The position numbers and the translations under genes were made by a program. From a virus, in the IMG/VR virus record IMGVR_UViG_3300033153_010811, positions 1 to 57,593 of that record: a stretch of 57,593 nucleotides of DNA; one strand, given 5' to 3'. The notes beneath the pieces are model-generated. The model saw nothing but the letters and a program-made list of their open reading frames with translations. It was not told where the DNA came from and made no database searches. Positions 7,665 through 37,744 of the stretch are shown here, piece by piece (the stretch's first letter is position 1; every line of letters starts with the position of its first letter).

Positions 7665-7997
7665 ATGAAGAAGAAAATCTATTTAGCGTGTCCTTTCAGC
7701 CACCCAGACCCGAAAGTAAGAGAGTGGAGAGTTGAACAGGCAAGCAAAAAGGCCGCTGAATTAATGGAGTCTGGATATTTAGTTTTCAGCCCTTTAAGTC
7801 ATTCTGTCCCGATTTCTAAATATTGTCGAGTTGACCCTTGTGATAATGATTTTTGGTTAGAGCAGGACCTCTGGATTCTTAGCAGTTGTGATGAGATCCG
7901 TGTTTTGTGTTTACCTGGATGGGAAAGATCTGAAGGTATAAAAGTGGAACTTGAGATTGCTAAGTCTTTAGGAAAAGTTTTATATTTGACATGTTAA
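7665..7997 (+). CDS. DUF1937 nucleotide-hydrolase/deoxyribosyltransferase-like protein
   Basis: The 110-residue product starts KIYLACPFSHPDPKVREWRV and continues LMESGYLVFSPLSHS, ending with SEGIKVELEIAKSLGK. This is the DUF1937/DUF4406 pattern, related to nucleoside 2-deoxyribosyltransferases, with the C-terminal glutamate in the usual position. It may act on nucleotides or nucleotide-derived metabolites. AGAGG precedes the ATG. Confidence 0.7.
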   Translation: MKKKIYLACPFSHPDPKVREWRVEQASKKAAELMESGYLVFSPLSHSVPISKYCRVDPCDNDFWLEQDLWILSSCDEIRVLCLPGWERSEGIKVELEIAKSLGKVLYLTC

Positions 7998-8866
7998 TAC
8001 GAGACCACTATCAAAATTTTAAGAGGTATAATCTTCCGAAAGCACAATTAATTATTGCCGACATCCCTTACAATATTGGTATAAACGCATATGGCTCCAA
8101 CCCGGCATGGTATATTGACGGAGATAACTCAAAAGGCGAAAGTGATCTTGCCGGCAAGAAGTTTTTCGCAACTGATGAGAATTTCAATTCTGCTGAATTT
8201 ATGCATTTTTGCAGCAAGATGATGAGAAAAGAGCCTAAAAAAAAGGGTTGTGCGCCTGCAATGATAATCTTTTGCTCGTTCGAGCAGCAACACGGATTAA
8301 TTGAACTTGCAAAACGGTATAACATAAAGAAATATATAAATTTAATTTTTAGAAAGAATTTTAGCGCGCAAGTTCTAAAGGCAAATATGAGAATTGTAAA
8401 TAACGCTGAATATGGTTTATTATTGTTTAGAGATAAGCTTCCAAAATTCAACAACAACGGAAAAATGATATTTAATATAATTGATTGGGAAAAGGATAAA
8501 AATACCAGCCCGTTATATGAAAAAATTCATCCTAATCAAAAGCCAATCCCTTTGCTCGAAAAACTAATAAATATTTTCACGGATGAGGGTGATGTGGTAG
8601 CCGATCCTGTAGCTGGGAGTGGATCGACAATAATAGCAGCAGAAAATCTTAACCGGAAGGCTTATGGTTTTGAAATAGATAGGAAAATTTATCAAAAAGC
8701 AGAAAAATGGATTAATTATAATAAAAAAGTTCGAGAAGAAATAAACAAAACGCTATTTTCACAAACGCTTCTAAATAAAACAGATCCAGGGCAAATGTAT
8801 TTATGGGGGAATTATGGGAACAAAACTGAAACGCAGAAAAAAGACCCGAAAGCAGAAAATAGCTGA
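7991..8866 (+). CDS. N4/N6-type DNA methyltransferase
   Basis: The 291-residue protein has catalytic motif IV as DIPYNIG (~22) and, near the C-terminus, the SAM motif DPVAGSGSTIIAAENLNRK (~199) followed by GFEID. Motif IV before motif I is the beta-class order. The HPNQKP motif (~177) is also typical. It would methylate adenine or N4-cytosine in a specific site, likely for anti-restriction. It overlaps the previous gene by seven bases. Confidence 0.85.
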   Translation: MLIRDHYQNFKRYNLPKAQLIIADIPYNIGINAYGSNPAWYIDGDNSKGESDLAGKKFFATDENFNSAEFMHFCSKMMRKEPKKKGCAPAMIIFCSFEQQHGLIELAKRYNIKKYINLIFRKNFSAQVLKANMRIVNNAEYGLLLFRDKLPKFNNNGKMIFNIIDWEKDKNTSPLYEKIHPNQKPIPLLEKLINIFTDEGDVVADPVAGSGSTIIAAENLNRKAYGFEIDRKIYQKAEKWINYNKKVREEINKTLFSQTLLNKTDPGQMYLWGNYGNKTETQKKDPKAENS

Positions 8867-9161: not shown

Positions 9162-9896
9162 ATGGTTAGAACAAATAATATAGTTTCCTTGTCCGGCGGG
9201 AAAGACAGCACGGCCATGCTGTTGATGATGATTGAACATAAAATACCAATACATTCAGTAGTTTTTTTTGATACTGGATGGGAATTTCCACAAATGTATG
9301 GACACATAGATCTTATAGAAGAAAAGACAGGAATAAAAATATGGAGGTTGCACCCAAGATTGCCATTTGAATATTGGATGCTTCACAGACCCATTGTAGC
9401 AAGGAAAGGCAAATTAAAAGGTAAAATACATAGAATTGGTTATGGTTGGCCTTCTATGTCAAGAAGATGGTGCACAACAGAGAAAGTTGGAGCGATTGAA
9501 TATTTTTCCAAACCTATTCCAAATGTAGTTAATTGTATAGGATATGCTTCTAATGAAGATAGAAAGGTTTCTAATCCAAAATATAAAACAAGATTTCCTT
9601 TACAAGAATGGGATATAACAGAAAAAGACGCCTTAGAATATTGTTATAATAAGGGATATAATTGGGGTGGATTATATAAATTATTTAGGAGGGTGTCTTG
9701 TTATTGTTGCCCATTGCAAAGAATTGACGAATTAAGAACATTAAGAAAGCATTTTCCAGATCTTTGGAAAAAAATGTTAGAAATGGATCAAGCAAGACCA
9801 GAACATAACATAGGGTTTAAGGGATATAAAACAGTTAAAGATTTAGAAAGAAGATTTTATTATGAAGATTGTCAAATTAAATTGCCGTTGTCGTAA
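9162..9896 (+). CDS. PAPS-reductase-like PP-loop protein
   Basis: The 244-residue protein starts with SLSGGKDSTAMLLMMIE, the PP-loop of adenosine-nucleotide alpha-hydrolases, and has FFDTGWEFP (~34) and a CTTEK motif (~108). A Cys-rich block SCYCCPLQRIDELR (~180) matches phage PAPS-reductase-like proteins, some of which serve DNA phosphorothioation (DndC-like) or sulfur activation. Codon use is more AT-rich than its neighbours, and direct repeats flank it, so it looks inserted. The substrate is not known. Confidence 0.75.
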   Translation: MVRTNNIVSLSGGKDSTAMLLMMIEHKIPIHSVVFFDTGWEFPQMYGHIDLIEEKTGIKIWRLHPRLPFEYWMLHRPIVARKGKLKGKIHRIGYGWPSMSRRWCTTEKVGAIEYFSKPIPNVVNCIGYASNEDRKVSNPKYKTRFPLQEWDITEKDALEYCYNKGYNWGGLYKLFRRVSCYCCPLQRIDELRTLRKHFPDLWKKMLEMDQARPEHNIGFKGYKTVKDLERRFYYEDCQIKLPLS

Positions 9897-10714: not shown

Positions 10715-11032
10715 ATGAATGATGAAGCGGGTTGGAAACTAGTTGGGTTTGCGTTGATGTTATTGAGTGCCGCAATAATGGTATTTTCCATTATCGGGGT
10801 GTATGACTCTTTTTGGCATGTCCCGGCAAAAAACGCAGCGATATATCAACTATCTCAAAAAAATGAATTGTTGCAGGCCGAAAACCGTAAAATGAAAATA
10901 GCTATGCGTTTTGAGAATCTTTTCACAACCTTTGCGAACCCTAATCAAATGATCGACTTCAAAGAACTCGAAAATTACATCTGCGAAAAGCGCGGGTTCT
11001 GTTTAGATCCGGTCGATAAGAGGGTAAAATAA
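10715..11032 (+). CDS. Small membrane protein with coiled coil
   Basis: The 105-residue product has one transmembrane helix (residues ~8-30, VGFALMLLSAAIMVFSIIGV) then a coiled coil (AIYQLSQKNELLQAENRKMK) and a soluble tail. GGAGG precedes the ATG, and the stop overlaps the RuvC start (TAATG). The role is unknown; a link to the array locus downstream is only positional. Confidence 0.6.
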   Translation: MNDEAGWKLVGFALMLLSAAIMVFSIIGVYDSFWHVPAKNAAIYQLSQKNELLQAENRKMKIAMRFENLFTTFANPNQMIDFKELENYICEKRGFCLDPVDKRVK

Positions 11033-11496
11033 TGCGCGTGTTAGCAATAGACCCAGGTCCTGTCGAGTCGGCCTATGTTCAATGGGATGGGGAAAATATT
11101 GAAGGGTTTGGCCTGGAAGATAATGAGGCTATGCTTGATTTAGTAAGTTCGGTCGGGGAAGCTCCTAAAAATATGGTTATCGAACAAGTACGCTCATATG
11201 GGATGCCAGTCGGTGCTACCGTTTTCGACACGGTGTTTTGGACAGGCCGATTTTGCCAGGCCTGGCATGGTGATTTTTGGCTGGTGCCGAGAATAGAAAT
11301 CAAGCAACACATTTGCCATGATTCCAGGGCGAAGGATAGCAATATCAGACAGGCCCTTATTGATAGGTTTGAGCCAGATTTAAAACCGCGACAAAGACCT
11401 AAAGGAATTTTAAAGGGTGTTAAAAAAGACATCTGGCAAGCATTTGCCTTAGCGGTTTTTTTTGTGGACGTGCGAAGTAATCAGGTGCGATTGTAA
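11032..11496 (+). CDS. RuvC-like nuclease/Holliday-junction resolvase
   Basis: The 154-residue protein has the RNase H-fold catalytic pattern of RuvC: first acidic residue in LAIDPGPVES (~7), second in NMVIEQVRSYG (~49), and a last acidic residue in KDIWQAFALAVFF (~139). Stand-alone RuvC-like resolvases are common in phages and process recombination intermediates. Here the stop codon lies five bases before the first motif of the repeat array. In TIGR-Tas systems, as I recall, one class fuses a RuvC domain to a Nop domain (TasR), so this gene could also be a separate nuclease subunit. The resolvase reading is the default. Confidence 0.75.
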   Translation: MRVLAIDPGPVESAYVQWDGENIEGFGLEDNEAMLDLVSSVGEAPKNMVIEQVRSYGMPVGATVFDTVFWTGRFCQAWHGDFWLVPRIEIKQHICHDSRAKDSNIRQALIDRFEPDLKPRQRPKGILKGVKKDIWQAFALAVFFVDVRSNQVRL

Positions 11497-11501
11497 ATAT
11501 A

Positions 11502-11735
11502 TGCGAGCCAACGAAAAACTGAAACCTACTGGCGGTGTGCGAGCCAATATAAAAATAAAGCCCAGGTATGGATTGCGAGCCATTACATTTTTGAAACCCA
11601 GTGAAAGCATGCGAGCCAACATTGTATTAAAACCCATACGATCTATGCGAGCCATCTCGATATTGAAACCCAAGCCCAATGTGCGAGCCAGCAGATGCTT
11701 GAAATCCACAAAATTGATGCGAAAACTTAACCCAA
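11502..11735 (+). repeat. TIGR-like array 1: six 36-bp units
   Basis: Motif 1 (TGCGAGCCA) starts at 11502, 11538, 11574, 11610, 11646 and 11682, exactly 36 bp apart. Motif 2 (TGAAACCCA or close variants) starts 18 bp later each time. Variable 9-bp segments lie between. Segment pairs are acgaaaaac/ctggcggtg, atataaaaa/ggtatggat, ttacatttt/gtgaaagca, acattgtat/tacgatcta, tctcgatat/agcccaatg, gcagatgct/caaaattga. A degenerate TGCGAAAAC at 11718 ends the array, then TTAACCCA and a GGAG ribosome site. The frame is open through this array, but array 3 shows it need not be. Confidence 0.9.
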
Positions 11736-11751
11736 AAAAAGGAGAATAATT

Positions 11752-12378
11752 ATGCAATTCAAAATTGAAGAATTAAAAAAACGGTACGACAAAAAGAGTG
11801 TGGGGCAATGTGTCGCTGAAGCGAAAAGCCTTAACGAAAAAATGATCCAGCGAGGGGAGGAACTTGTCAGCTTACTCTGGTATCTCGAAAAAACCAAGCG
11901 ATTTCGCGAGTACAAAGGGTATGAGAAAATTGCTTTCAATGTTTTTGTCTTTGAAGTTTGCCACATTCCATACAACCGCTATAGGCAGCTTGCTTATGCT
12001 TACAATTGGTACCCCGTAGAATCGAGGGAATACGGTCCCCAGACCATTCAGAGGATTAGAAGTAAGGTCGGGGTTGTAAAAATCCCGAAGGTGCTGGGCG
12101 AAATTAAGAAAAAGGTTAGTAAAATAACGGCACCAGAGAAAAAACGAGAGGCGATTGAACAGGTTATTAAAAAATACGCGCCTCCGAAAAAAACTATCCC
12201 ATCGACCGATACGAAAGCATATTGGAAAAGCAAGTATGAGGAATTGTTGGAAAAGTATAAATTTCTCGAAAAAGAGAACGATGAAATGCGCAAACAATTA
12301 GCAAGGCAAAGAGTACCGCTGGAAAATTTCATGAAGATCCGGAACCTCATTCAAGAGGATTCGGTTCTATTACAGTAG
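11752..12378 (+). CDS. Unknown 208-aa protein between guide-like arrays
   Basis: The N-terminal half is helical and aromatic (LVSLLWYLEKTKRFREYKG, ~44; YNRYRQLAYAYNWYPVE, ~77), and could hold a DNA-binding fold. The C-terminal part is basic, with a coiled coil (KYEELLEKYKFLEKENDEM, ~162-182). The start is set by AAAGGAG eight bases upstream of ATG 11752. It lies between arrays 1 and 2 on the same strand, so probably belongs to the same locus. I do not recognise the family; roles in array expression, acquisition or as a partner of the Nop-like protein are all possible. Confidence 0.65.
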   Translation: MQFKIEELKKRYDKKSVGQCVAEAKSLNEKMIQRGEELVSLLWYLEKTKRFREYKGYEKIAFNVFVFEVCHIPYNRYRQLAYAYNWYPVESREYGPQTIQRIRSKVGVVKIPKVLGEIKKKVSKITAPEKKREAIEQVIKKYAPPKKTIPSTDTKAYWKSKYEELLEKYKFLEKENDEMRKQLARQRVPLENFMKIRNLIQEDSVLLQ

Positions 12379-12383
12379 AGTAG

Positions 12384-12511
12384 CACAAGCCGTCTCAATC
12401 ATAAAACCCAACGGAGCAATGCGAGCCAAAAAAGCCTTACTGAAACCCGTGGGTTACATGCGAGCCAAGGGGTGTTTGAAACCCACCGAATTGATGCGAA
12501 ACCATAACCCA
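12384..12511 (+). repeat. TIGR-like array 2: about three units
   Basis: Motif 1 occurs degenerate at 12384 (CACAAGCCG) and intact at 12420 and 12459. Motif 2 occurs at 12402 (TAAAACCCA), 12441 (TGAAACCCG) and 12477. Segment pairs are tctcaatca/acggagcaa, aaaaagccttac/tgggttaca, aggggtgtt/ccgaattga. One segment is 12 rather than 9 nt. The segment tgggttaca, with its preceding TGAAACCCG, also occurs in array 3. The end (TGCGAAACC, then ATAACCCAAAAAAAGGAG) nearly copies the end of array 1. Confidence 0.85.
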
Positions 12512-12528: not shown

Positions 12529-13386
12529 ATGAACACCAAATGGAACGAAATATCGAACGAATTAAACTATGCGATTAAGAATTACAATGGTATAGTAAAA
12601 CAGATCGTACAGATCAAAAACCGAGCACATGCTTATGGGATTGACCCGAAACACGAAGTTCTAATCCATGGCAAGATCGCAAAAGACGGCACTTCCAGAA
12701 TGCAGGGCCTGGAATCATTGAAGGGTGTGGCAGCGCGAAAGATCGGTCGAATCCTGAAGGACTTCCCGATCTGGACCGAATGGCTTGACAATGTTCCGGG
12801 GATCGGTATGGTCATCGGCGGGCAGCTTATAGCACTTTATTATTTTAAGAATATCCCGATCTGCTCTAAATGCGGCGCTGACCTGAACGATAATTTCGAT
12901 TGCCCCATCTGCACAATGAAGGCGAAAGGACAGGGTATCCTTAAGTTCAGAGTGGAGCTTCGAGACTTCCCGACAATATCAAGCTGGTGGCATTTCATGG
13001 GCCGGCACGTAATAAAGGGGAAAATACCAACAAAAGGAAATGTTAAAAAACTAAAGGCCGGCGATTCGGGAAAGCTGGTCGATTGGTCATTCAGTGGTAA
13101 GAAGTTAGGATACGATTTTAAGGAGTCAATCAATAAAATGCCCAGCGACAACAAATACAAAGCATACGCAGAAAAACGAAAGCGGTACCGTGAGGAAACA
13201 CACCCGAACGCCACAAAGGGACACCGCCATAACATGGCATGGAACGAGGCCTGGAAGTTGTTCCTATCGCATTTTTGGCAGGTCGATCATATACTGAGCG
13301 GTGCAGAGATGACTAAGCCGTGGTGTGTTCAACACGGGGGGCATGACCAGAGTTCGATAATCCGACCGTTTTATTTTGAAACTTAA
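12529..13386 (+). CDS. Nop/IS110-C-terminal-like protein, candidate Tas effector
   Basis: The 285-residue protein has a helical N-terminal region (~1-85), then DNVPGIGMVIGGQLIALYYF (~86-105), a PGxG helical element found in Nop domains and in the C-terminal domain of IS110 transposases. A CSKCG...CPIC zinc-ribbon-like insertion follows (~111-127), then DFPTISSWWHFMGRHV (~145) and KGHRHNMAWNEAWKLFLSHF (~223), comparable to the basic RGK-type helix of Nop proteins. Nop domains bind guide RNP scaffolds. Arrays flank it on both sides. I see no HNH or RuvC motif in it, so it would be a nuclease-less Tas or would work with the RuvC-like gene upstream. The similarity is by eye and the assignment is inference. 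Confidence 0.65.
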   Translation: MNTKWNEISNELNYAIKNYNGIVKQIVQIKNRAHAYGIDPKHEVLIHGKIAKDGTSRMQGLESLKGVAARKIGRILKDFPIWTEWLDNVPGIGMVIGGQLIALYYFKNIPICSKCGADLNDNFDCPICTMKAKGQGILKFRVELRDFPTISSWWHFMGRHVIKGKIPTKGNVKKLKAGDSGKLVDWSFSGKKLGYDFKESINKMPSDNKYKAYAEKRKRYREETHPNATKGHRHNMAWNEAWKLFLSHFWQVDHILSGAEMTKPWCVQHGGHDQSSIIRPFYFET

Positions 13387-13396
13387 TTATAAAATA

Positions 13397-13693
13397 TGCG
13401 AGCCACGCCGCGCCTGGAACCCAAAGGAAATGTGCGAGCCATTTTCAATTTGAAACCCACTTGACATATGCGAGCCGGTCGCTAATTGAAGCCCAAAGAT
13501 CGAATGCGAGCCATTACTTCTCTGAAACCCAGCGAAACGGTGCGAGCCAAAGAGCTGTTGAAACCCGTGGGTTACATGCGAGCCATGAGAGGCGTGAAAA
13601 CTACTGAGATGATGCGAGCCAAGAATTGTTTGAAACCCATTGATGTCGTGCGAGCCACCACCATCTTGAAACCCATTGGCGGCATGCGACCTC
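13397..13693 (+). repeat. TIGR-like array 3: eight 36-bp units
   Basis: Motif 1 starts at 13397, 13433, 13469, 13505, 13541, 13577, 13613 and 13649, always 36 bp apart, with motif 2 18 bp after each. Segment pairs: cgccgcgcc/aaggaaatg, ttttcaatt/cttgacata, gtcgctaat/aagatcgaa, ttacttctc/gcgaaacgg, aagagctgt/tgggttaca, tgagaggcg/ctgagatga, agaattgtt/ttgatgtcg, ccaccatct/ttggcggca. Stop codons fall in the repeat frame (TGA near 13461, TAA near 13484), yet the motifs stay intact, so the array is conserved as nucleic acid, not as protein. A last partial motif TGCGACCTC (13685) runs into the terminator. Confidence 0.92.
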
Positions 13694-13696
13694 ACC

Positions 13697-13747
13697 CCAA
13701 AAACCCCCTGAGAAGCCCTCAGAGGCTTTTCTCGGGGTTTTTTTGGG
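13697..13747 (+). terminator. Strong terminator closing the array locus
   Basis: AAAACCCC...TGAGAAGCC pairs with GGCTTTTCTC..GGGGTTTT around a short loop, followed by seven T residues. The mirror side has a T-run too, so it can also stop the leftward Dam transcript. It closes the array locus only four bases after the last partial motif. Confidence 0.85.
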
Positions 13748-13799: not shown

Positions 13800-14519
13800 C
13801 TAATTTTTAATAAAAACGCATTCTTTCGGACGGTTTTTCCTAACATTTTTCCCCCGAAGTCCCTGATCAATATCTGTCAGCCTAGTAAATGGCAGCCAAT
13901 TCGCTGATTCATTTTCGCAGCAAATTATTTGGCCGCGCCGAGATTTAACCCATGTGGCGAGTTTATGATAATTTAATTTATTTTCCGTATATAATCTCCC
14001 GGGCGTGTCTTGATACGGAGGATCGATGAACCATGTTGCGGTAATATTTGGAGCATCTTCGTATGATCTATGTAAAATTTTCCAGTGTTGTATTTTTGGA
14101 TGCCAGAATTTTATTTTTAAAATTGTGTTATGATACCAATGTTTTACTGCTATTTTAGTAATTGTATTGACTTTTACATTAAGCCCGCCTGTGCCAATAT
14201 TAGCGGACATTCTGAGGATATTTTTAAGACCTTGAGGGAAATCATCAAAATATTTAATATCATTGATTTTATCCCCAGCATTTACTTTTTTGGGAATTTT
14301 GTTAATATAATTTAACGCATCTTGCGATTTAACGAAATTCCATGCCTCTATTGTTTTTAGGTTCGTATCAAGTAAAATAATATTATGTTTATACCACCGC
14401 AAAGAATAAGCAGCCCCACCGGCAAATGGTTCGATTATAGTTTTATGTTTTGGTGGGGGATATTTGTTTACCAACATTCCTTTCCCCCCGTAATAATTGA
14501 AAACAATTCTATGTTTCAA
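13800..14519 (-). CDS. D12-class DNA adenine methyltransferase (Dam-like)
   Basis: The 239-residue product has motif I as FNYYGGKG (~7), FAGGAAYSLRW (~33) and catalytic WFIDPPYQDTPGRLY (~159), the alpha-class order of D12/Dam enzymes. It would methylate adenine N6 in a specific site, probably for anti-restriction or packaging. It is last in the minus-strand accessory operon and converges on the array locus. Confidence 0.85.
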   Translation of the reverse strand: MKHRIVFNYYGGKGMLVNKYPPPKHKTIIEPFAGGAAYSLRWYKHNIILLDTNLKTIEAWNFVKSQDALNYINKIPKKVNAGDKINDIKYFDDFPQGLKNILRMSANIGTGGLNVKVNTITKIAVKHWYHNTILKIKFWHPKIQHWKILHRSYEDAPNITATWFIDPPYQDTPGRLYTENKLNYHKLATWVKSRRGQIICCENESANWLPFTRLTDIDQGLRGKNVRKNRPKECVFIKN

Positions 14520-14726: not shown

Positions 14727-14796
14727 AAAATAAAAAAGGCGTACTATCCTGCAATATGGACAGTACGCCTGTGATTTGCCAAGATTATTCTTGGCG
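14727..14796 (-). terminator. Tandem-hairpin terminator element, copy 2
   Basis: Leftward RNA forms GCCAAG/CTTGGC (14795-14778) and then a 12-bp stem (14769-14758 with 14749-14738) running into TTTTTTATTTT. It shares flanking sequence with copy 1, including GAACCGCCA before the first hairpin. It follows immediately the stop of the 15417 gene, inside the operon. Confidence 0.75.
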
Positions 14797-15428: not shown

Positions 15429-15487
15429 TTTGCCCCGGCTTAGGGCTTTCGTTACCCGGTTCAGCGTTCCCCTTGACCGGGTTGAAA
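15429..15487 (-). repeat. Intercistronic repeat, copy 1
   Basis: About 58 bp: minus strand ATTTCAACCCGGTCAAGGGG, then AACGCTG..CGGG, then CCGGGGCAAAAGGAGG. It starts just after one gene stops and ends with the ribosome site of the next gene. Close copies lie at 15882-15939 and 17038-17088; this copy is the most diverged. Confidence 0.65.
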
Positions 15488-15493
15488 TAATAA

Positions 15494-15881: not shown

Positions 15882-15939
15882 CTTGCCCTGGCTTAAGGCT
15901 TTTGTTCCCGGCCAGCGTTCCCCTTGACCGGGTTGAAAT
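15882..15939 (-). repeat. Intercistronic repeat, copy 2
   Basis: The copy is nearly identical to 17038-17088 over about 50 bp, including GGGGAACGCTGGCCGGGAAC and AAAAGCCTTAAGCCAGGGC. It carries CCGG..CCGG and CCTT..AAGG self-complementary stretches and ends in the ribosome site of the next gene. Confidence 0.7.
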
Positions 15940-16529: not shown

Positions 16530-16559
16530 ACTACCTCTCCAATGACCGGGTTGAAATGA

Positions 16560-16601
16560 AAATAAAAAAGGCGCACTATCCATATTGCAGGATAGTGCGC
16601 C
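16560..16601 (-). terminator. Repeated terminator hairpin, copy 3
   Basis: A perfect 12-bp stem (GGCGCACTATCC at 16601-16590 in the leftward reading, mirrored at 16581-16570), then TTTTTTATTTT. It shares its stem sequence with copies at 6436 and 14727 but lacks their first small hairpin. It sits between the stop of the 17023 gene and the start of the 16529 gene. Confidence 0.75.
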
Positions 16602-16606
16602 TTGAA

Positions 16607-17037: not shown

Positions 17038-17088
17038 TTTTGCCCTGGCTTAAGGCTTTTGTTCCCGGCCAGCGTTCCCCTTGACCGG
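17038..17088 (-). repeat. Intercistronic repeat, copy 3
   Basis: The copy overlaps the 3' end of the 17259 gene, which is why that protein ends in VKGNAGREQKP. Sequence matches copy 2 almost base for base from CCGGTCAAGGGGAACGCTGG onward. It is followed by the ribosome site of the 17023 gene. Confidence 0.7.
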
Positions 17089-35211: not shown

Positions 35212-37744
35212 TTTAGGAACCTTATATACCTCGTTTGGAGCTGACCTCGGTCCGTTGAAGCGATCTGCGACTGCTGCGGAAGCACAGTTTCGTAAGTTTC
35301 AGAAAGGAGGTGTTGCGGCATTAACTACTGTGCGAAAAGAAGTAGTTAATTTGCGCAATTCTATGATTGCTCTTAGCGCCATTGCCATTGCCGCGAAATT
35401 GGTGAAGGAAGCTGCAGAGTATGAAGAGGCATTAGTTGATATGCACAAAGTCACTTCTCGCTCGTTCAAAGCGATTAACAAAGACATTATGTCTCTTGAC
35501 TCCAGTCTTGGAAAATCTACCGACTTAATGAGGGGCTATTATCAAACAATCTCAGCTGGGGTAACGGAACCGAAAAAGGCAATGGATTTGTTAGTTACCG
35601 CTTCTAAATTGGCGAAGGTTGCCCATATTGACCAGGCAACTGCCGTGAAAACCCTGGCTGTTATGATGGGCTCTTATGGGGATGAATTGAAAAGTACTAC
35701 AGATGTCGCAAATTTACTCCTTGCCATTGAAGCAAAAGGGATAACAACTACAGGGGAAATGGCTGCACAGATAGGCCTGGTGGCCAACCTGTCACGTGAA
35801 ACCGGTTTGGCTGCAAATGAAATGGGCGCCGCATTAGCACAAATAACAAAAAGTGGAATAGGAACCGCGGAGAGTGTGACGCAATTACGATCATTATTAA
35901 CAGCATTGACCAAGAATTTTGATGAACTTCCTCCTTCTATTAAGAAATATGGTTCCGTTACGAATGCAATACAGAAATTGAGTTTTATAGAAACGCTGCA
36001 AGAAATAATGACTGCCACTGGGGACAACGCGCAAGCTCTAACAAAAATGTTAGGACGACAGGAAGCTTTTCTTGCGATGCTGCAATTATTGAAAAGGGAT
36101 GGAAAAGAATACGAAGATGTCCTGTCGGGAATGATAGATAAAACAGGTGGGCTAACTAAGGCATGGAAGGAATATGAAGAGACTTACAAGGCAATGAAAG
36201 AAGCTGTGCTTGCTGACCTGAATAAAATCATGATTGAATTAGGAATGAGAACTCTTCCAACGGTTAAGGAGGCATTGAAAGGTATTCGTGATAATATGGA
36301 TTTGATTTCCACAGCAGTTAATAATCTTTTGAAGATAGCTGGTGTGTCTATTAAAATTTTGACAGGTTGGTTAGTACACAAGTCTTTCAGAGCATTTCTT
36401 GTTTGGACATCATTGGCTACTGCCGGAGTAGGCAAAGTAGCTACTGCTGTTAATCTGCTTCGTATTTCCATCAAGGCGTTGGGACGGGCCGCGCTTTATG
36501 GTCTGATCGTAGAAGGTATCTCGCGAGTAGTATCTGAATTTAGGAAGATGAATAAATTTGTGAAAGAAACTCCTGCGGCATGGGGGGCTGCAATACGTTT
36601 GGCAATGGATAACATTGTGAACACTGTGATTAATAGTTTTGTGGCTCTTGGTAATTTGATGCCAAACTTATTACGCTTAATTACTGATCCAATAATTGCC
36701 GCGTTCACATCTTTTAACATTCTGAATTTGATATTTGGTGATTTGACAAAAGAAGAAGCATGGACAGCAGTGATATCATCAATGAAAACAGCCTTTACGG
36801 ATGCTTTAACACGCATTGGGGATACTTTTCAAGCGGATATGTCGCGACGAATTGTTTCAATTGCTTCTGAGATTGATAAAGTACTTTTACGAGATTGGTC
36901 GAAATTGCCAAAGGAAGTTACTGACGGAATGAACGAGAAAAAGGGTCTCAGCAATGTAAGTGAAGGTCTCAGCAATGTAAGTGAAGGTCTCAGCAATGTA
37001 AATAGAGAACTTCAGCAATATTACGGCTGGTGGTCTGCATACGGCGAGACCATGGAAGATTTTTATACGACAAATTCAGAGGTAATGCTTGATTTTGCGA
37101 AAGAGAATTTTTCTACTCTTGAAAATTTATCCCAACGAACCGCCGAGGCTATGGAACAGAACTTTTCTGATTTTTATTTTGACGCCATGCGAGGAGAATT
37201 TGATTCTTTGCGAGATTATGCCAATGCCGCGCTCAGAAGTATTCAACGTGCTACTGCCGATATCCTGGGGCAGATGACTAAGGAGCTTATATTTGGAGAA
37301 GGCTCTGGGGGTGGTGGACTGATACAAAGCGCTGGAAAATGGCTTGGGTCTTTATTTGGCGGTGGTAGTTCTGGGTATAATCCAGCAGATTGGGCCGAAA
37401 CGTTGTGGGCGAAAGGGGGAGTGTTTGAAAAAGGTCGTGTCCATGCTTTTGCGCGTGGAAGCGTTATAAATCGTCCCACACTTTTCCCCATGGCCCGTGG
37501 CGCCGGCCTTATGGGCGAGGCTGGTCCAGAGGCTATTATGCCACTAACCAGAACGTCATCGGGAGACCTGGGAGTTAGAGCAGAAGGGGCTGGTAGAGGA
37601 GTTACGAATATTAATATATATGCCTGGGACAGTCAGAGCATGGAGCAGTTTGTTCGGCGCCATAAAGACATATTTGTTGGGATTAATGTTGAAAACATTG
37701 AGCGCAATGGCGATCTCAGGCAGGCGATAGGAGCAACAATCTGA
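35204..37744 (+). CDS. Tape measure protein
   Basis: The 846-residue product has an N-terminal ADLGPLKRSATAAEAQFRKF, TP901-type core (YYQTISAGVTEPKKAMDLLV; TKSGIGTAESVTQLRSLLTA), hydrophobic helices (~385-480) and a C-terminal GEAGPEAIMPLTRTSSGDLG. It fixes tail length; at about 0.15 nm per residue it suggests a ~125-nm tail. A short tandem repeat lies at 36944-37005. Confidence 0.88.
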   Translation: MADLGTLYTSFGADLGPLKRSATAAEAQFRKFQKGGVAALTTVRKEVVNLRNSMIALSAIAIAAKLVKEAAEYEEALVDMHKVTSRSFKAINKDIMSLDSSLGKSTDLMRGYYQTISAGVTEPKKAMDLLVTASKLAKVAHIDQATAVKTLAVMMGSYGDELKSTTDVANLLLAIEAKGITTTGEMAAQIGLVANLSRETGLAANEMGAALAQITKSGIGTAESVTQLRSLLTALTKNFDELPPSIKKYGSVTNAIQKLSFIETLQEIMTATGDNAQALTKMLGRQEAFLAMLQLLKRDGKEYEDVLSGMIDKTGGLTKAWKEYEETYKAMKEAVLADLNKIMIELGMRTLPTVKEALKGIRDNMDLISTAVNNLLKIAGVSIKILTGWLVHKSFRAFLVWTSLATAGVGKVATAVNLLRISIKALGRAALYGLIVEGISRVVSEFRKMNKFVKETPAAWGAAIRLAMDNIVNTVINSFVALGNLMPNLLRLITDPIIAAFTSFNILNLIFGDLTKEEAWTAVISSMKTAFTDALTRIGDTFQADMSRRIVSIASEIDKVLLRDWSKLPKEVTDGMNEKKGLSNVSEGLSNVSEGLSNVNRELQQYYGWWSAYGETMEDFYTTNSEVMLDFAKENFSTLENLSQRTAEAMEQNFSDFYFDAMRGEFDSLRDYANAALRSIQRATADILGQMTKELIFGEGSGGGGLIQSAGKWLGSLFGGGSSGYNPADWAETLWAKGGVFEKGRVHAFARGSVINRPTLFPMARGAGLMGEAGPEAIMPLTRTSSGDLGVRAEGAGRGVTNINIYAWDSQSMEQFVRRHKDIFVGINVENIERNGDLRQAIGATI
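36944..37005 (+). repeat. 21-bp tandem repeat in the tape measure gene
   Basis: Three copies of a 21-bp unit, GGTCTCAGCAATGTAAGTGA plus A, encode GLSNVSE three times. The unit keeps the frame, so copy number would change tail length by seven residues each. Confidence 0.8.

What the first reader, a model, noticed from the sequence alone, without database searches (positions are those of the whole stretch)
13397..13693. Array motifs survive broken reading frames, so the array is nucleic-acid selected
Array 1 has an open frame with 12-aa repeats (RAxxxLKPxxx), which could be mistaken for a repeat protein. In array 3 the same frame contains TGA and TAA, yet motif bases and 36-bp spacing are kept exactly, including third codon positions. 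That points to RNA or DNA function.
Basis: seen in the sequence. Interest (0 to 1): 0.8.

Follow-up and report, generated by a model that had tools for sequence, protein, structure and literature searches.

The report
Phage guide-RNA array of TIGR-Tas type
The repeats are not a protein gene: they are three clusters of short paired guide sequences beside the gene of the protein that should carry them, a phage-borne relative of the RNA-guided TIGR-Tas systems described in 2025, whose natural targets remain unknown.

Summary
Array 3 (13397-13691) has eight units spaced exactly 36 bp: TGCGAGCCA, 9 variable bases, TGAAACCCA, 9 variable bases. Array 1's RAxxxLKP frame is open; array 3's has TGA (13462) and TAA (13483). 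In 585 units from other contigs, stops in that frame are not significantly depleted, and spacers share 26% identity.

It is a dual-repeat TIGR array (Faure et al. 2025). Three arrays (6+3+8 units) alternate with a helical, possibly ParB-like gene (11752-12378) and a Nop-domain tasA gene (12529-13386), ending at a hairpin and T-run. A profile of 39 TasA relatives matches solved TasR at 5e-75 and TasH at 5e-39. The closest relative (69%) has the same three-array module in another phage.

Most likely a nuclease-free, RNA-guided DNA-binding system against other DNA. No target site was found in its own genome, nor above controls in related phages or cellular genomes.

Possibly new: zinc-ribbon TasA tracks with the partner gene (12 of 12 partner contigs; 0 of 27 without ribbon), and single spacers recur within arrays, mostly in the same slot. 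New member of a known kind.

The parts
11502..11725 (+). TIGR array 1: six 36-nt units (edge TGCGAGCCA, spacer A, loop TGAAACCCA, spacer B), ending in a 3'-truncated edge just before the ribosome-binding site of the next gene
   Evidence: sequence re-read
11752..12378 (+). partner gene, 208 aa, all-helical model with a C-terminal coiled coil; candidate TasParB
   Evidence: relatives in 15 ORFs of 12 contig groups; model mean pLDDT 72; best VIA-align row is ParB bound to parS, Z 5.8, rmsd 6.7, 104 aligned; no convincing Pfam, NCBIfam or PDB sequence match
12384..12503 (+). TIGR array 2: three units (5'-truncated first edge; one unit of 39 nt), ending in a 3'-truncated edge before tasA
12529..13386 (+). 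tasA: 285-aa Nop-domain protein without a nuclease domain, with a zinc-ribbon insertion CxxC-x9-CxxC at residues 112-128
   Evidence: phmmer to 9mty (TasR) E 5.1e-16; 39-sequence profile to 9mty 5.2e-75, TasH 5e-39, IS621 7.1e-7; alignment A3
13397..13691 (+). TIGR array 3: eight 36-nt units ending in the 3'-truncated edge TGCGACC
13696..13747 (+). hairpin with T-run after array 3, rho-independent-terminator-like
   Evidence: inverted repeat I11; RNA fold -30.2 kcal/mol, z -3.9, 0 of 200 shuffles as stable; the generic scan counts 5 terminator-like sites in the region against 4.1 in shuffles, so the scan alone is not evidence
11032..11496 (+). neighbour, judged not part of the module: RuvC-like Holliday junction resolvase
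   Evidence: phrog_1770 E 2.5e-15; found by tblastn only in the window among 50 sequences

Best explanation
This is a dual-repeat TIGR array of a TIGR-TasA module. Shown here: alternating 9-nt edge (UG...CCA) and loop (UG...CCA) repeats with 9-nt spacers A and B on one strand; a Tas-family Nop protein next to them; truncated edges; a terminal hairpin. Inferred from the published relatives: the operon transcript is cut into 36-nt guide RNAs, a TasA dimer holds each guide by the two UG/CCA boxes, and spacer A pairs with one strand of a DNA target while spacer B pairs with the other (target reads A followed by the reverse complement of B). TasA has no nuclease, so the complex most likely binds and bends foreign DNA and blocks or marks it, helped by the helical, possibly ParB-like partner; this last step is a guess (about 0.4 for interference with other mobile DNA). 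The arrays are not translated into a functional repeat protein.
For: 36-nt units with UG...CCA boxes in both repeats. TasA matches TasR 9mty and TasH by sequence profile; 18 of 39 relatives hit Pfam Transposase_20. The same exact repeat pair was found in viral contigs (49 stretches) and genome contigs (16 stretches); Tas ORFs lie in 43 contig groups. L044 carries the same array-partner-array-tasA-array order with different spacers, between terminase and portal genes. Terminal hairpin. No frame selection. No own-genome site for any of the 17 window guides within 2 mismatches in the published geometry, as expected if targets are elsewhere. Published rules: PMC12045711, sections 4-10, 24, 44 and 49 read.
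Against: No expression or processing data. No natural target found, so the guide role of these spacers is inferred from relatives. The window TasA alone gives no Pfam hit at 0.01, and its AlphaFold model failed (pLDDT 43.7, two-sequence alignment), so fold identity rests on sequence profiles. Foldseek gave the partner no match at E <= 0.001.
Confidence: 0.92

Rival explanations
1. The array encodes a 12-aa repeat protein (RAxxxLKPxxx).
For: Frame +2 is open through array 1 (95-aa ORF 11462-11749) and array 2; in some relatives the tas or partner ORF runs on into array-derived codons (L045, L024 and L019 tails, L051 head).
Against: Array 3 has two stops in that frame; stops are near the number expected by chance in 585 units; repeats are conserved at all three codon positions; spacers are random-like at 26% identity.
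Confidence: 0.02
2. The repeats are DNA sites (iteron- or parS-like) bound directly by the ParB-like partner, with partition or copy control as function.
For: Arrays flank the partner gene; the partner's best structural row is a ParB-parS complex (Z 5.8, below the level the tool itself trusts).
Against: 31 of 43 tas-bearing contig groups have no detected partner yet carry the same repeat pair; repeats are oriented on one strand, match box D/C of tigRNAs and end in a terminator-like hairpin.
Confidence: 0.04
3. An IS110-type transposon with a bridge RNA.
For: Profile matches IS621 (7.1e-7) and ISCro4 (1.1e-6) over the RNA-binding part; a RuvC-like gene lies upstream.
Against: No N-terminal DEDD domain in the 285-aa protein; many short units rather than one bridge RNA; far better match to TasR and TasH; the RuvC-like gene is absent from the other 49 sequences searched, L044 among them.
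Confidence: 0.01
4. TasA acts with the upstream RuvC-like resolvase as a split TasR nuclease.
For: The gene sits directly upstream of array 1.
Against: It is an ordinary phage Holliday junction resolvase family (phrog_1770) and is found beside none of the other 49 array stretches by tblastn.
Confidence: 0.03

Closest known systems
TIGR-TasA with TasParB (Faure et al. 2025, PMC12045711, methods section on parB-like genes; fig. S14 only as described there)
   Same: TasA operonised with a possible ParB-like helical gene; dual-repeat arrays upstream, between and downstream; phage setting
   Different: The paper's supplement was not seen, so I cannot say whether this phage or the zinc-ribbon insertion is already listed; 'zinc' does not occur in its main text
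TaTIGR-TasR (PDB 9MTY) and SpTIGR-TasH
   Same: 36-nt units, UG and CCA boxes, Nop domain
   Different: No RuvC or HNH domain here; zinc ribbon inserted where TasR has a short turn
IS110/IS621 recombinase with bridge RNA
   Same: Shared RNA-binding (Nop-like) domain and split guides
   Different: No DEDD domain, no single bridge RNA, no element ends
Box C/D snoRNP (Nop5)
   Same: Two guides per RNA framed by box C and D (comparison taken from the paper)
   Different: No fibrillarin or L7 partner; DNA rather than RNA is the presumed target

Membership tests
TIGR-Tas (dual repeat) | two alternating 8-12-nt repeats with 9-nt spacers | tested here: met
   both spacers 9 nt in 470 of 541 units and in 14 of the 15 window units called there (the other has a 12-nt spacer A)
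TIGR-Tas (dual repeat) | UG (box D) and CCA (box C) at the ends of both repeats | tested here: met
   consensus TGCGAGCCA and TGAAACCCA; per-column frequencies
TIGR-Tas (dual repeat) | adjacent Nop-domain Tas protein | tested here: met
TIGR-Tas (dual repeat) | truncated edge repeats at array ends and a terminator | tested here: met
   sequence; hairpin; array 1 lacks an obvious 5'-truncated edge
TIGR-Tas (dual repeat) | processing into 36-nt tigRNAs bound by Tas | not testable with these tools
   needs RNA sequencing
TIGR-Tas (dual repeat) | tandem targeting of both DNA strands | not testable with these tools
   searches for natural target sites negative
TasH or TasR subtype | N-terminal HNH or RuvC nuclease domain | tested here: not met
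   285 aa; profile alignment covers only the Nop part of TasR, residues 102-324; no nuclease Pfam
TasParB partner | ParB-like protein encoded in operon with tasA | tested here: inconclusive
   position fits; fold comparison weak, Pfam, NCBIfam and PDB sequence searches negative
IS110 transposase | DEDD catalytic domain plus single bridge RNA | tested here: not met
   17 short units instead
CRISPR array | one 25-36-nt repeat with spacers of similar size | tested here: not met
   two alternating 9-nt repeats, 9-nt spacers

The most novel reading that the evidence does not exclude
A distinct branch of TasA, marked by a zinc ribbon, works only together with a ParB-like partner: the guides choose a DNA site and the zinc-ribbon TasA loads the ParB-like protein there, an RNA-programmed parS that silences, marks or hitch-hikes on foreign or host DNA without cutting it. 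Its arrays evolve by moving single spacers between units rather than by capturing whole guides.
Probability: 0.12. Interest if true: 0.85.

Novelty: new member of a known kind. Interest (0 to 1): 0.4.

Why it matters
It places a further phage TIGR-TasA module, with relatives in dozens of environmental phages and in some bacterial and archaeal genomes, into a family whose natural role is an open question. Two observations bear on open points named in the 2025 paper: single-spacer sharing speaks to how arrays change, and the ribbon-partner link tells which TasA proteins to test with the partner. For genome reading it is a clean case of an open frame with regular peptide repeats that is not a gene.

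Tried and rejected
Targets in own and related phage DNA: 478 units against 508,522 bases of loci gave 4, 33 and 570 sites with 1, 2 and 3 mismatches in the published geometry against 1-3, 24-37 and 494-563 in three wrong geometries. A first look at self-matches seemed positive (A.rcB gap 0 with up to 3 mismatches: 17, or 15 without duplicated contigs, against 3-6 in controls), so I fetched the rest of the contigs as an independent test: on 1.10 Mb of new sequence (32 contigs, 424 units) the counts at 3 mismatches were 15 against 12, 11 and 16. The lead is dropped. Across 1.64 Mb (600 units) there is one exact site, gap 1, L020 guide in the phage of L080, inside a 91-aa ORF of unknown function, and 12 sites with at most 1 mismatch against 3, 7 and 6 in controls; 4 of the 12 come from one A/T-rich unit. 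I treat this as chance.

Targets in cellular genomes: six genomes that hold arrays, a query of 53 of the 144 units, one 17-base match from an unrelated array; 155 genomes of the order of Smithella sp. SCADC, 51 units, 72 of 155 genomes with a match against 64 of 155 for the wrong geometry, two exact 18-mers in each. Three viral-contig scans for single guides or guide families: 0, 0 and 30 hits, the 30 being a 16-fold degenerate pattern lying in many unrelated genes.

Codon-phase idea (near-duplicate guides differ at wobble positions): 4 of 5 two-difference pairs are in phase (p 0.03), but pairs with up to 3 or 4 differences are not (p 0.52, 0.15); a codon-model test of guide geometry gave z values from -1.8 to 2.6 with no consistent pattern. 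Not claimed.

Rfam and PADLOC gave nothing; the TasA protein search of phage records gave no match.

Full report
What is there. The window is a whole IMG/VR virus record of 57,593 bases, a tailed phage by its terminase, portal, tape-measure and tail-fibre genes. Between 11.5 and 13.75 kb it holds array 1 (six units), a 208-aa gene, array 2 (three units), a 285-aa gene, array 3 (eight units) and a hairpin with a T-run. Each unit reads TGCGAGCCA, 9 nt, TGAAACCCA, 9 nt. The pattern with up to three mismatches occurs 15 times, all in these arrays and all on one strand, and never in 100 shuffles.

The frame argument. Counting from the first T, frame +2 gives RAxxxLKPxxx; it is open in arrays 1 and 2 and broken in array 3 at 13462 (TGA) and 13483 (TAA). 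Relatives allow a stronger test: in 585 distinct units from other contigs, frame +2 has 113 stops against 125.2 (sd 8.4) in column-preserving shuffles (39 of 500 shuffles at or below) and frame +1 has 140 against 137.9. Shuffling all spacer letters instead gives 148.4 (sd 12.1) for frame +2, which by itself would look like depletion; I trust the control that keeps column composition. Spacers share 26% identity. In a few relatives the neighbouring ORF runs into the array and picks up array codons (alignments), which shows how a false repeat protein could be annotated.

Identity. The 285-aa protein matches chain 9mty_A, which is TasR of the TIGR-Tas paper (the code occurs once in that text), at 5.1e-16 alone and at 5.2e-75 with a profile of 39 relatives; TasH follows at 5e-39, then IS621 and ISCro4 near 1e-6. 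The protein has no nuclease domain, so it is of the TasA type. The array grammar equals the published one: 8-12-nt edge and loop repeats, 9-nt spacers, UG and CCA boxes in both repeats, truncated edges, terminator (sections 4, 5 and 8 of PMC12045711). The paper also describes operons of TasA with a ParB-like gene and arrays upstream, downstream and between (section 44). The 208-aa gene fits that place. Its fold evidence is weak: a helical model of pLDDT 72 whose best VIA-align row is ParB on parS with Z 5.8 over 104 residues at rmsd 6.7, while Pfam, NCBIfam and PDB sequence searches are empty or show only scattered, mostly coiled-coil matches.

Relatives. An exact search for the repeat pair found 49 stretches in viral contigs and 16 in genome contigs (9 of those 16 held at most one callable unit); two variants of the loop repeat added further stretches. 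In all, 765 units were called, 687 distinct, 599 of them exactly 9/9/9/9 in 61 loci. Profile iteration found 49 Tas ORFs in 43 contig groups and 15 partner ORFs in 12 groups. The nearest relative, L044, has TasA at 69-70%, the partner at 47% and the same order of three arrays and two genes, but no spacer pair in common, and sits between terminase and portal genes (the two gene names there are my reading of the translated ORFs, not a family search). The window's upstream Holliday junction resolvase is not part of the module.

Two observations that I have not seen in the text read. First, a zinc ribbon (C112, C115, C125, C128) is inserted in TasA. Of 43 contig groups, all 12 with the partner have a ribbon pattern, 4 have a ribbon pattern without a detected partner (by alignment one of these, L020, has its cysteines elsewhere, L010 is cut short beside tasA, and L059 was not aligned) and 27 have neither (alignment). 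The pattern match is loose and contigs are related, so this is a strong association, not a statistic. 'Zinc' does not occur in the paper's main text; its supplement was not seen. Second, single spacers recur inside one contig while the other spacer of the unit differs: A with A 4 times, B with B 3 times, A with B once, against 0.10, 0.12 and 0.21 expected in column shuffles. The window shows it: the 27-nt stretch TGAAACCCG-TGGGTTACA-TGCGAGCCA occurs in arrays 2 and 3, with the same rare loop variant, which suggests copying inside the arrays rather than two captures from a target. In 3 of the 8 cases listed (window, L027, L047) a loop variant is shared as well.

Targets. From the paper's 'C - 5' rule and 8-nt 3' overhangs I deduce that a target's top strand reads spacer A followed by the reverse complement of spacer B, gap 0 to 2 (my inference). 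None of the 17 window guides has a site with two or fewer mismatches in its own genome; the single site with three compares with 4, 5 and 4 in wrong geometries. Searches in related phages, in six genomes that hold arrays and in 155 genomes of the order of Smithella sp. SCADC gave nothing above controls. One apparent self-target excess failed on independent sequence. Natural targets stay unknown, as in the paper's discussion.

How it most likely works. Transcription of the operon, cutting into 36-nt guides, capture by a TasA dimer, and binding of both strands of a DNA target are all inferred from solved and tested relatives. With no nuclease, the outcome should be binding and bending of DNA, perhaps with recruitment of the partner. 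Absence of own-genome sites favours DNA of others as target. I give 0.97 to 'TIGR-TasA module', about 0.6 to 'targets lie outside the phage genome and matter to it', and about 0.4 to interference with other mobile DNA as the role.

Novelty. Literature searched: (open-licence full texts only); only PMC12045711 was read, in the sections named. The system is a new member of a known kind; the ribbon-partner link and single-spacer sharing are the parts that may be new.

Noticed in passing
window 15883-15931 and 17040-17088, with relatives at 15462-15492 and 16531-16561: A 49-nt stretch is repeated identically, with shorter relatives, in a region of small ORFs; looks like a repeated leader or regulatory element (D5 and D6).
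   Followed up: no
window 14736-14770 and 16569-16603: 35-nt inverted pair, 91% complementary, 1.8 kb apart; the second arm also forms a perfect 14-bp hairpin with itself (I1 and I25).
   Followed up: no
window 7991-8866 and 13800-14519 (-): Two DNA methyltransferases of different classes (N6_N4_Mtase and D12) lie on either side of the module, one 2.6 kb upstream of array 1 and one directly downstream of the hairpin on the other strand.
   Followed up: no
window 9162-9896: PAPS-reductase-like (PP-loop) protein.
   Followed up: no
contig of L005, L022, L035, L038 (72,476 bases): One phage contig carries 106 called TIGR units over four stretches (overlap between stretches not checked), far more than the 5-15 that the paper calls usual.
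   Followed up: partly
L067 (Thermoplasmatota MAG contig): 39 units, including guides that share spacer A (TCGGGATAC) with spacers B differing at one or two positions three bases apart, as if several versions of one coding target were covered.
   Followed up: partly
L066 (Planctomycetota MAG contig): Two guides that differ at positions 0, 3, 12 and 15 of the deduced 18-nt target, all in one codon phase.
   Followed up: partly
window 36944-37001: 21-bp tandem repeat, 2.8 perfect copies, inside the tape-measure gene.
   Followed up: no
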